This document shows positions 1 through 25,117 of a stretch of DNA of 35,444 nucleotides, piece after piece. Source of the DNA: Treponema sp. (GTDB lineage Bacteria > Spirochaetota > Spirochaetia > Treponematales > Treponemataceae); the NCBI GenBank assembly GCA_024697295.1, contig JAILFZ010000089.1, positions 1 through 35,444 on the forward strand, written 5' to 3'. The stretch's first letter is position 1, and every line of letters starts with the position of its first letter. Both the position numbers and the translations under genes were made by a program. The notes under the pieces are model-generated. The model was not told the DNA's origin. It saw only the letters and a program-made list of their open reading frames with translations, and did not search any database.

Positions 1-16
1 AAAAAATCTGTGGCAT

Positions 17-395
17 TGGAGATGGGGGGAATTGAACCCCCGTCCGAAAGTGTAATCCAAATACATCTACATGTTTAGTTATGCGAGGTAGTTGTCGGAA
101 GCAGGTAGCAGCATAACAAGCGTCTGCTTCGTATCCGGCCAAAAAGTCCCGTAAAGCAGGTCAGAATACTTTACAGCAAGTCCCTGTTAGCGACAGAACA
201 TTACAAAGTTAGGAACAGCGCCCCGTAAGTTCCGGCCAGGCTGCTTACGCAGCGAGAGCTTCTGCAGAAGAAGCTTCAACAACTTCTTCTTCTTTTCTTG
301 CGAAAATTGCAGTTATTTGTTTGTCAGTTTGGGGAACCTTCACTCCCACATGCAGTAAGTGCATTATTCACAGTCGTCGAAACCAGTGCACCCCC
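17..395 (-). ncRNA. ssrA: tmRNA (transfer-messenger RNA)
   Basis: Rescues stalled ribosomes by acting as alanyl-tRNA and then as a short message. Read on the minus strand, the 5' end GGGGGTG (389-395) pairs with the 3' CATCTCC (18-24) through Watson-Crick and G-U pairs to form the acceptor stem, followed by the conserved TGGTTTCGACG block. The T arm (GGGGG TTCAATT CCCCC) lies near 24-42. The tag frame appears to resume at GCA (308-310, preceded by TAACT) and ends with GCT CTC GCT GCG TAA (stop 245-247), giving a 21-codon tag that starts AIFARKEEE and ends EALAA. The discriminator A is followed by ATG, so the CCA end is not encoded and must be added. The identity is certain; the exact resume codon is inferred from the TAACT-GCA context. 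Confidence 0.95.
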
Positions 396-19601: not shown

Positions 19602-20108
19602 TTACAGAAACAAAACTCTTGGAAAAACAAAATGCAGAATACCGGCAAGAATACAGAAAATTCCAAGATATTTACGTCCACCCACAAAAATTGAAGTTAA
19701 GAATACAGGAAGATTAAAACCAACATCTGATTTCTGTGAGTAATATTCAATAAGCAGTGCAAAGGCTCCCGCAAGACCTGCAACAGCCGGAATCAGGTCA
19801 CCGATAAGGGGCATATCCCCCTGAACAGTAGAAAGAAGCTTCATCAAACCAACGAGGGCGGAAAGAATTGCGATTACCAGACGGAATGTAGGATCATCAA
19901 AAAAGAGAGGATTTGCAAAAATATTTTTTGATGATTTTGGAACGTCTTCTGCAGAGTCTTCTGTGCTTTCGTCAGACTCATCAGTTGAATCAGCATCATC
20001 TGTTGTTGCAACAGCAGCGGATTCCTGTGCCATAAAATTTGTGGCATACACTAAAATAAGACCAATTATGAGATTCAATAAAATCGAAAGAAAATAAAAC
20101 TGCAGCAT
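19602..20108 (-). CDS. Membrane protein of unknown function
   Basis: Unrecognised; 168 residues. Hydrophobic N-terminal segment (3-22), then an acidic Asp/Glu/Ser/Thr-rich loop of about 28 residues (36-60, DDADSTDESDESTEDSAED), and three or four further hydrophobic segments (76-95, 102-123, 130-145, 147-166), including GLAGAFALLIEYYSQKSD. AAGGAG lies 7 nt before the ATG. It follows the 188-residue protein gene across a 116-bp gap filled by a hairpin element, so co-transcription with the two genes upstream is likely but passes through that structure. Confidence 0.65.
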   Translation of the reverse strand: MLQFYFLSILLNLIIGLILVYATNFMAQESAAVATTDDADSTDESDESTEDSAEDVPKSSKNIFANPLFFDDPTFRLVIAILSALVGLMKLLSTVQGDMPLIGDLIPAVAGLAGAFALLIEYYSQKSDVGFNLPVFLTSIFVGGRKYLGIFCILAGILHFVFPRVLFL

Positions 20109-20130
20109 TTTTTAACTCCTTACAATTTCC

Positions 20131-20231
20131 GCGTTAGCGGTCGTGCAGGAGGCACGATATCGCAGTTTTGCCAGCGGCAAAATCTGCCAGTTATAAAAAG
20201 TACACGGAAGTACTTTTTATAACGCTAACGC
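20131..20231. repeat. Cruciform-like element bounded by GCGTTAGCG / CGCTAACGC, with three internal hairpins
   Basis: Outer inverted repeat GCGTTAGCG (20131-20139) and CGCTAACGC (20223-20231). Inside are three consecutive hairpins: TCGTGC/GCACGA (20141-20157), TTTTGCC/GGCAAAA (20166-20182) and a perfect 14-bp stem GTTATAAAAAGTAC/GTACTTTTTATAAC (20190-20223) with a 6-nt loop. The stop codon of the 188-residue gene (CGT TAG on the minus strand) lies within the right boundary. It fills the gap between two genes of one apparent operon. Confidence 0.85.
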
Positions 20232-20791
20232 TTTTCGACAGTGCATAAAAGGTTCTGGTCTGATTGCCTGAAAGAAACCTCTGCACTTATATAAAATATA
20301 TCATAATCATGGAAAGTTGTCCTTAAAAAAGTTTCTTTTTCTTCATAATTGAGCGTAAAGCTCTGTTTTTCGACAGCCATTTTATCCGCATCAAGAAATT
20401 GAATTTCTACATTGATTACGCTGTCAGGAGTTTTTTCAAATTTTTTTTCCGGCTCCTCAAAACAGAGGCTCACATAAACATTTTCTTCAAATGAAAAGGC
20501 AGAAAGACTGAGCGGCACATGTTCAATAAATGCCTTGTCAGGCTTATTGAATACACCGTTGATAAAGATTACTGCAACAACGATGATGAGGGTAAAAAAC
20601 ATAAAACGGTTGCCTTTAGTGGCAACAAGAGCCTTAAAGAGTCCCGGACGGAAGGCTTTAAAATCACCGGCATAATAGTCCTGAACGATTTTTGGAGCCG
20701 CTTTAATGCGTTCTTCCCTGTTGTAGTGAAAAACCATTTCTTCTTCCGGGGACTTTGTTTCTACTGCTTCAGGAATCGGCTTATAATCCAT
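20225..20791 (-). CDS. Single-pass membrane protein of unknown function
   Basis: Unrecognised; 188 residues. A charged N-terminal cytoplasmic part of about 60 residues (MDYKPIPEAVETKSPEEEMV...) precedes one membrane helix (MFFTLIIVVAVIFINGVF, about 64-81). The remaining 105 residues look beta-rich and extracytoplasmic (LSLSAFSFEENVYVSLCFEEPEKKF). A weak GGA ribosome site is present. It lies 21 nt after the lipoprotein gene upstream. The final codons, AAG CGT TAG, come partly from the boundary of the hairpin element, so the original C-terminus may have been altered by its insertion. Confidence 0.65.
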   Translation of the reverse strand: MDYKPIPEAVETKSPEEEMVFHYNREERIKAAPKIVQDYYAGDFKAFRPGLFKALVATKGNRFMFFTLIIVVAVIFINGVFNKPDKAFIEHVPLSLSAFSFEENVYVSLCFEEPEKKFEKTPDSVINVEIQFLDADKMAVEKQSFTLNYEEKETFLRTTFHDYDIFYISAEVSFRQSDQNLLCTVEKR

Positions 20792-22183: not shown

Positions 22184-24976
22184 ATGTTAGATAAAATTTT
22201 TACCGCGATTTTCGGTTCGCAAAATGACCGTGATGTAAAAAAACTTAAGCCTGTTGTTGCGGCTGTTAACGCAAAAGAAGAATGGGCCAAATCCCTTTCT
22301 GCCGAAGATTTTCCAAAACAAACTGAAATTTTTAAAGAAAGAATAAAGAACGGCGAAAGCCTTGATGATATTCTCCCGGAAGCCTTTGCACTCTGCCGTG
22401 AAGCCGCTTACCGCGTACGCGGCGAACGCGCATACGACGTTCAGATTATGGGTTCCATCGTCCTTCACTCGGGACGCATCACCGAAATGAAGACAGGTGA
22501 AGGTAAAACCCTTGTTGCCGTAGCACCTTCATACCTCAACTCGCTCACAGGAAAAGGCGTACACGTCGTAACGGTAAACGATTACCTTGCTGAACGCGAT
22601 GCCAACACAATGCGTCCGGTATTTGCCTACCTTGGCTGCTCGGTTGGTGCAATTCTTTCAAACATGGACAACGATGCACGCCGACAGGCATACGCATGCG
22701 ACATCACCTACGGTACAAACAATGAATTTGGTTTTGACTACCTTCGCGACAATATGCAGATTGACCTGAGCCGAAAAGTTCAGCGCGGGTTCAACTACTG
22801 TATCGTCGACGAAATCGACTCGATTTTGATTGATGAAGCCCGAACGCCGCTCATTATTTCCGGTGCAGGCGAAGACGATACCTACAAATATTATGAAGTA
22901 GACAAATACGTCGGTGAACTTACAGAAGTTGCAAAAGATCCTGCCACAGACGACTACCCGGACGAAGTCAACATGACTCCGGAAGAGCGGGCCGCAATGG
23001 AAGGCGACTATAAAATCGACGAAAAATCAAAACGTGTTTCATTTACCGACAAAGGTATGGACCACATTGATAAAATTCTTCACAAACACAATCTCATCGC
23101 TCCTGACACAAAACTCCAGGACGAACAGAACTTTGAATTCCTGCACTACTTTACACAGGCAGTACGCGCCCACCTTCTCTACGAAAATGACGTAGACTAC
23201 GTTGTAAAAGACGGTCAGGTTCAGATTGTTGACGAATTTACAGGCCGTATTCTTGAAGGCCGCCGCTATTCTGACGGACTGCACCAGGCAATCGAAGCAA
23301 AGGAGCACGTTCACATCGCACAGCGAAACCGTACAATGGCAACAGTTACCTTCCAGAACTTTTTCCGTATGTACACAAAACTTTCGGGTATGACAGGTAC
23401 TGCCCAGACAGAAGCAGTTGAATTTGGAAAGATTTACAAACTCGACGTTGTTGCAATTCCGACAAACCTTCCTGTTGCACGTATCGACGAAAACGACGAA
23501 GTTTACCTCAACGAAGAAGATAAATGGAATGCAATCGTTAAAGAAATAGAAACTGCCCATGCAAAAGGACAGCCGATTCTCGTAGGTACAGTTTCTGTAG
23601 AAAAATCTGAACATCTGTCTGCTCTTTTGACACGCCACGGAATCCGCCACGAAGTATTGAACGCAAAGAACCATGCACGCGAAGCTCTGATTATCGCAGA
23701 AGCCGGCGCCAAAGGTTCGGTTACTGTTGCAACAAACATGGCAGGTCGTGGTACCGACATCAAGCTCGGAGGAAGCTACGAAAGCCGCGCAGTTAAACGT
23801 GCAGGCACTAACGCAACTCCGGAACAACTCAAGGAAGCCATGCAGATTGAAAAAGAAAAATGGCTCAAGGATTACGAAGAAGTCAAAGCACTCGGCGGTT
23901 TGTACGTAATCGGTTCTGAACGCCACGAGTCACGACGAATTGACAACCAGCTGCGCGGTCGTTCTGGACGTCAGGGGGACCCGGGACGATCTAAATTCTT
24001 TATCTCAATGGACGACGACCTTATGAGGCTTTTTGGCGGAGAAAAGATGAAGAACATCATGAAGCGCATCGGTATGACAGACGGTGAACCAATCTTCCAT
24101 CCCTGGCTCAACAAGGGTATTGAAAACGCCCAGAAAAAAGTTGAACAGCGCAACTTTGAAATACGTAAAAACCTTATCGACTATGACGACGTTCTCAACG
24201 AACAGCGCGAATACATCTACGAACAGCGTGACGGCATTCTCGCAGACGACAATCTTTCAGAACGTATCATGAATACAGCAAACGACTACCTGGATGAGTG
24301 GTTTGCTGAATACGCGCACAACCGCAAAACAGGTCTCGGACAGCTTCTGGATAATATCCGCGAAAACTTCGGAATCCAGCTTCCAGCAGAAGAAGTTACA
24401 AAAGAAAAGGTAATTGCCCTTCTCCAGAACGATTTGACAGAAAAAGAAACGCTTGTCGGACACGAACAGTTCAATATGTTTATCCGGTATCAGTATATCC
24501 AGCAGATTGACCGTAAATGGCTCGACCAGCTCGAATATCTGGACGGGCTTCGCGAAGCAGTTCACCTCAGAACATACAGCTCAAAGAACCCGCTCACTGA
24601 ATACAAAATTGACGGCTTTAACATGTTTGATGAACTTATCGAAGGAATCCGCCTGACAATCGCAGGACGAGTATTCAAGGTGCGTGTACGCATCAACGGA
24701 CAGCCTCAGCCGGTTCAGCGCAACATCCAGATGAACGCACAGCACCAGGAAGCTCAGAGCATGAGCCAGGCTGCCGGAGCCGCAGCACAGCAGACTCAGC
24801 AGCAGGCAAGTTCAAACTTTAACAGCTACTCAAGCAGACAGGCCGCAGGAAGAGTAATGGCAGGTGCCCGCCAGGGAGACAACATTACTGTACGCCGTAC
24901 TATGCCAAAGGTAGGCCGTAACGACCCGTGTCCATGCGGAAGCGGTAAAAAATACAAGCAGTGCCATGGGCGTTAG
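22184..24976 (+). CDS. secA: Preprotein translocase ATPase SecA
   Basis: Motor that pushes unfolded preproteins through SecYEG. Walker A MKTGEGKT near residue 102-109, Walker B region [21 protein letters not shown] near 207-227, [25 protein letters not shown], and [20 protein letters not shown] of the second ATPase domain, helical scaffold, then a Gln/Ala-rich linker and the zinc-binding SEC-C tail [18 protein letters not shown]. Length 930 is within range. The last codons GGG CGT TAG coincide with the start of the downstream hairpin repeat, so the repeat supplies the stop. Start codon context lacks a ribosome site. Confidence 0.98.
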
Positions 24977-25117
24977 CCTTCGGCTAAGCCCAACGAGTTT
25001 GCACAGGCAAACTCGCAGTCGTTAGCGTGACCGGGAAAGATGCAAAGCCTCTTACGCACGGGCGTTAGCCTTCGGCTAAGCCCAACGAGTTTGCGCAGGC
25101 AAACTCGCAGTCGCTAA
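24968..25117. repeat. Tandem pair of about 57-bp two-hairpin repeats after secA
   Basis: Copy 1 starts at 24968 and copy 2 at 25060 (92 bp apart); over the first 54 bases they differ at one loop base (CACAGG versus CGCAGG). Each has hairpin A (GGGCgTTAGCC, loop TTC, GGCTAAGCCC) and hairpin B (CGAGTTTGC, 4-nt loop, GCAAACTCG), then CAGTCG[T/C]TA. The loop difference leaves both stems intact. The 32 bases between copies (25028-25059) show no clear structure. Confidence 0.9.

What the first reader, a model, noticed from the sequence alone, without database searches (positions are those of the whole stretch)
20131..20231. Cruciform-like element with three nested hairpins inside an operon gap
Outer GCGTTAGCG/CGCTAACGC arms enclose stems of 6, 7 and 14 perfect base pairs. 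The stem sequences differ from those after secA, yet boundary word (GCGTTAGC), hairpin-spacer-hairpin design and CGCAG-type spacers are shared. This looks like a family of small non-autonomous modules in which outer boundary and layout are kept while inner stems vary, somewhat like REP/BIME or miniature inverted-repeat elements.
Basis: partly seen in the sequence, partly recalled or inferred. Interest (0 to 1): 0.6.

Follow-up and report, generated by a model that had tools for sequence, protein, structure and literature searches.

The report
Hairpin element inserted at ribosome-binding sites
This is one copy of a roughly 110-base hairpin DNA element found dozens of times per genome in many Treponema-like bacteria, almost always wedged exactly between a gene's ribosome-binding site and its start codon and bringing a replacement ribosome-binding site with it, so it seems able to spread without silencing the gene it enters.

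Summary
The 'outer arms' and the link to the secA repeat come from the upstream gene and secA both ending in CGT-TAG (Arg-stop); relatives lacking the element keep that gene end. The true element reads on the - strand as H3-H2-H1-H0-tail-AAGGAG-ATG. Its genome holds about 30 clear copies plus remnants, and 41 of 59 same-genus genomes have matches. Stems covary strongly. In 129 of 137 copies an ORF starts directly after the element's Shine-Dalgarno (SD) sequence; most exceptions run into another element. Relatives provide empty sites, one exact. A distinct 220-nt family (11 copies, 98-100% identical, genome G057) uses the same target, so SD insertion looks recent. The core is distantly related to Rfam TD-2 (focal 43.4 bits, gathering 48.7); sister families resemble TD-1. 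I read these as non-autonomous mobile elements inserting 3' of an SD and supplying a replacement SD. No enzyme was found: Y1 (IS200/RAYT), reverse transcriptase and IS110 families are absent from several copy-rich, nearly complete genomes. Loops of two hairpins match CsrA-type sites on the + strand; their role is open.

The parts
20116..20225 (-). whole element (gene sense: H3-H2-H1-H0-tail-SD), about 110 nt
   Evidence: covariance model hit 20107-20233, 129.1 bits; simple copies in own genome are 109-111 nt between the two GGAG
20190..20223 (-). H3, 14-bp perfect stem, loop UUCCGU (gene sense) = ACGGAA on + strand
   Evidence: covariation
20162..20187 (-). H2, GCAG.TTTTGCC/GGCAAAA.CTGC stem
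20141..20157 (-). H1, 6-bp stem, loop CUCCU (gene sense) = AGGAG on + strand
20129..20140 (-).
   Evidence: alignment and pair counts
20116..20121 (-). element's own Shine-Dalgarno AAGGAG
   Evidence: conserved as element 3' end; 129/137 copies followed by an ORF start
20106..20108 (-). start codon of downstream gene (ORF 19602-20108)
   Evidence: same gene end in relatives without the element

Best explanation
A non-autonomous mobile element. A 110-nt unit inserts immediately 3' of the AGGAG of a Shine-Dalgarno sequence, always in one orientation, and ends in its own AGGAG, so the gene's old SD is pushed upstream and the element supplies a new one at the right distance from the start codon. 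Shown: dispersal, site, orientation, empty sites, stem covariation, retention of the 3' SD in decayed copies. Inferred: that the hairpins are recognised as folded DNA by an unidentified enzyme acting in trans, and that SD-only placement comes from target choice plus selection to keep the gene expressed.
For: Own genome: about 30 clear copies plus about a dozen remnants; 41/59 same-genus genomes positive. 129/137 copies lie directly before an ORF start, 128 of them ATG; GGAG mostly 5-8 nt from the start. In near-complete G057 all 15 full copies: 13 before ATG, 2 inside a tandem array. Window control: 3 of 5 non-coding AGGAG sites are SDs. Empty sites: L115 in G066 equals the G000 L033 locus minus element exactly at AGGAG; the tsf locus has relatives without it; focal locus: no element in 12 of 14 relatives, a full element in L326. 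Downstream genes are unrelated. Stems: 97.4% of cells paired, 435 two-sided changes vs 109 shuffled; only 0.5% G-U in gene sense and 1.3% on the other strand, low for RNA helices as I know them. A second family in G057: 11 copies 98-100% identical, all between AGGAG and a start codon.
Against: No mobilising gene found; Y1_Tnp, RVT_1 and IS110 tested and absent from several copy-rich genomes. SD-only placement is stricter than GGAG targeting alone predicts. A 4-nt GGAG duplication cannot be excluded; upstream and downstream pentamers agree slightly more than chance in single copies (47 vs 41.8, P 0.008). No transposition was observed. The scan model includes the SD and start region, and the 137-copy sample was drawn from the best-scoring matches.
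Confidence: 0.75

Rival explanations
1. A cis-regulatory RNA leader (as Rfam classes the relative TD-1): the folded 5' UTR controls translation of the downstream gene, perhaps with UCC loops pairing to the SD, and copies persist because they regulate.
For: Always in the leader in gene sense, strong covariation, TD-1 is typed Cis-reg in Rfam; H1 loop CUCCU is anti-SD-like.
Against: Downstream genes share no function and orthologues lack it; almost no G-U pairs on the mRNA strand; near-identical copies of the sister family at unrelated genes mean spreading whatever the function.
Confidence: 0.15
2. CsrA-binding RNA: on the + strand H1 and H3 present C[A(N)GGAN]G loops, the form I recall as ideal CsrA/RsmE sites; the element (and TD-2) would act as a CsrA decoy, or CsrA dimers could bridge it to SDs and so direct insertion.
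For: Loop form met in 90/100 (H3), 97/100 (H1), 87 both; TD-2 consensus has both loops; CsrA in 22/22 genomes tested; slight excess of G-U on that strand, 36 vs 15.
Against: In this genus that strand is antisense to the gene entered and no transcription is shown; CsrA is also in genomes without copies; the second G057 family shows no such loop pair by eye.
Confidence: 0.15
3. REP/IS200-type element moved by a Y1 transposase.
For: Hairpins, GGAG tetranucleotide at the foot of H3, one orientation, no clear duplication.
Against: No PF01797 match in G000, G001, G002, G004, G016 or G051, G055, G057, G063, G066, G116, G120, G194.
Confidence: 0.06
4. Chance cluster of palindromes.
For: None beyond the fortuitous outer arms.
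Against: All genome-wide data.
Confidence: 0.01

Closest known systems
Rfam TD-2 RNA (RF03162, clan CL00124)
   Same: Three-hairpin core with the same order and GGA loops; focal + strand scores 43.4 bits (E 0.001), sister copy L177 50.4; two loci of other genera score 86
   Different: Focal is below the gathering score 48.7; this genus adds H0, tail and SD, and its copies lie at start codons; Rfam types TD-2 as sRNA, on the opposite strand
Rfam TD-1 RNA (RF03155, same clan)
   Same: The two sister SD-inserted families score 45-59 bits
   Different: Gathering score 64.5 not reached; the focal element gives no TD-1 match
REP/BIME elements with RAYT transposase
   Same: Small, many copies, hairpins, GGAG-like foot motif, tandem chaining
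   Different: No Y1 gene in several copy-rich genomes; target is the SD
MIRU of mycobacteria (from memory)
   Same: Small element lodged at the translation boundary between genes
   Different: From memory MIRUs sit at overlapping stop/start codons; this one sits between SD and start and brings an SD

Membership tests
Rfam TD-2 (RF03162) | score at or above the gathering cut-off 48.7 bits | tested here: not met
   focal 43.4 bits, E 0.00099; one sibling (L177) reaches 50.4
Rfam TD-1 (RF03155) | score at or above 64.5 bits | tested here: not met
   no TD-1 match for the focal element or other copies of its family; sister families 45-59 bits
REP/BIME with RAYT, or IS200/IS605 derivative | Y1 transposase in carrying genomes | tested here: not met
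MITE of a DDE transposon | terminal inverted repeats | tested here: not met
   apparent terminal repeats are chance; the element ends (GCGTGATAAA... and ...TTTATAAGGAG) are not inverted repeats
MITE of a DDE transposon | target-site duplication | tested here: inconclusive
   five bases or more excluded by 9 of 11 copies of the sister family; a 4-nt GGAG duplication cannot be told from an element-borne GGAG
IS110 with bridge RNA | DEDD IS110 transposase in carrying genomes | tested here: not met
   absent in G057, G064, G063, G018, G116, G120, G194
Group II intron or other retroelement | reverse transcriptase in carrying genomes | tested here: not met
   absent in G000, G004, G006, G018, G057, G063, G066
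Integron attC | paired R/L boxes and an IntI integrase | not tested
   no attC or IntI search was run

The most novel reading that the evidence does not exclude
A new class of mobile element, including Rfam's TD-1 and TD-2, that targets Shine-Dalgarno sequences through an RNA- or CsrA-guided step rather than a known transposase, with the hairpin loops acting as guide or protein docking sites.
Probability: 0.12. Interest if true: 0.92.

Novelty: new variant of a known kind. Interest (0 to 1): 0.72.

Why it matters
If right, it recasts candidate regulatory RNAs in Rfam (TD-1, TD-2) as spreading elements and describes a 'safe haven' I do not know from other bacterial elements: entering the ribosome-binding site while replacing it. 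It also adds a structured leader to dozens of unrelated genes at once, which makes its effect on expression directly testable.

Tried and rejected
Outer-arm boundary and secA kinship: rejected. Y1, RT and IS110 as drivers: not found in several carriers. Copying from the 3' end with 5' truncation (retroelement-like), suggested by truncated copies upstream of full ones (32/137): internal deletions that also keep the SD (L278, L281) make decay under selection simpler. Loop-to-target pairing as the rule: not seen in the sister families. Phage and plasmid origin: no match in phages or plasmids, one hairpin-only match in viral contigs. Literature: no held paper on TD-1/TD-2 or on SD-targeted repeats of this kind; the 2017 paper I believe described TD-1/TD-2 is not held. 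The joined-flank query left out the L030 and L028 pieces by my error. A tRNA control for G-U frequency was not carried through.

Full report
OBSERVATION. The hairpins exist as described and the region folds far better than shuffles (z -7.7 RNA, -8.2 DNA). The window is contig C183 of a 1.93-Mb, 83%-complete genome. A DNA search found 21 matches in that genome and matches in 12 of 39 genomes searched, all in the same genus.

ANATOMY. Read on the - strand, the strand of both neighbouring genes, copies align as AGGAG-H3-H2-H1-H0-tail-AAGGAG-N(5-8)-ATG. In the copies measured in the own genome the piece between the two GGAG is mostly 109-111 nt, or about 173-187 nt in copies with a 62-nt insert in the H3 loop. 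The right arm is the upstream gene's AAG CGT TAG; relatives lacking the element keep GAAAAGCGTTAG (L331, L333, L336, L337). secA also ends CGT TAG, which explains the shared word. The focal copy lacks the usual upstream AGGAG: the gene end abuts H3.

FAMILY. A covariance model found matches in 41 of 59 same-genus genomes and none in 18. Match counts (up to 49 per genome) overstate copies, because the palindromic H3 also gives weak matches on the opposite strand; in the own genome I count about 30 clear copies plus about a dozen remnants. Beyond the genus, weaker matches occur in other genera and families of the order; those inspected mostly keep three hairpins with NTCCNT-type loops and are not tied to start codons, except in G147 of the same family, where an SD and ATG follow. 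One record, Treponema berlinense ATCC BAA-909, has a contig of exactly the length of G018:C13 (359593), so G018 is probably that species.

PLACEMENT. Of 137 copies examined, 129 have an ORF start right after the element's SD. The exceptions: L165 and L158 run into another copy; L087, L113, L068 and L190 run into a second element type; L029 has an ATG with a short frame; L189 is followed by an unclear stretch. Decayed copies in the own genome also keep the SD and an ATG. Non-coding AGGAG in the window is an SD in only 3 of 5 cases, so placement is stricter than the motif alone. Downstream genes include ones I recognise from sequence as tsf, leuS and fabF, with no common function.

EMPTY SITES. 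Removing the element from the L033 locus gives, at the junction, the G066 sequence CTTTAGGAGATAACCATG letter for letter; the tsf locus is empty in several relatives. At the focal locus, L326 has a full copy, L327 only a tail-like AGGAG-GC-GGAG stretch, and the other 12 neither.

JUNCTIONS. In a 220-nt sister family with 11 near-identical copies in G057, the upstream pentamer is always AGGAG while the downstream one is GGGAG in 9 and AGGAG in 2. This favours an SD carried by the element over a duplication of five or more bases; a 4-nt GGAG duplication is not excluded. In the focal family the two pentamers agree a little more often than by permutation, which lineage habits could cause. Tandem or remnant copies lie upstream of 32 of 137.

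STRUCTURE. On 100 copies, 97.4% of paired cells are standard, 23 of 28 pairs change on both sides, 435 two-sided cells against 109 in shuffles, and sliding the partners destroys it; the alignment was fitted to the structure, which favours it. Wobble pairs are rare on either strand: 15 (gene sense) and 36 (other strand) of 2788. I take this as pointing to folded DNA, with the caveat that no RNA control was completed. H3 and H1 loops read C[ANGGAN]G and C[A(N)GGAN]G on the + strand in 90 and 97 of 100, which resembles CsrA sites as I recall them.

KNOWN FAMILIES. Rfam gives TD-2 on the + strand at 43.4 bits for the focal copy, below the cut-off, and 50.4 for one sibling. Two loci from other genera of the family, which I take to be oral treponemes near T. 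denticola, score 86. The sister families resemble TD-1 at 45-59 bits. The focal element is therefore a distant TD-2 relative, not a member by Rfam's threshold.

MECHANISM. Shown: spread, site, orientation, empty sites. Inferred: recognition of folded DNA and an enzyme in trans. Pfam searches for Y1 transposase, reverse transcriptase and IS110 did not find a candidate shared by carriers; other recombinase families were not searched.

Noticed in passing
L291, L293, L295, L297, L299, L301, L303, L305, L307, L309, L311 (G057): A 220-nt multi-hairpin family, 11 copies 98-100% identical, each between AGGAG and a start codon; TD-1-like; related copies in G064.
   Followed up: partly
L087 1652-1771, L113 1661-1778, also L068 and L190: A TD-1-like SD-inserted element directly downstream of focal-family copies, in several species.
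   Followed up: partly
L022, L026, L032, L033, L036, L162: A 62-nt insert in the H3 loop, nearly the same in several copies, itself containing a small hairpin and AGGAG.
   Followed up: no
window 24968-25115: 92-bp-spaced duplicated hairpin repeat after secA; no match to the family's covariance model and not seen in other fetched loci.
   Followed up: partly
L247-L266: TD-2-like three-hairpin modules, sometimes in tandem, in other genera; two hairpin loops carry GGA on one strand, like CsrA sites.
   Followed up: partly
window 14-395: tmRNA gene on the - strand (Rfam, 122 bits).
   Followed up: no
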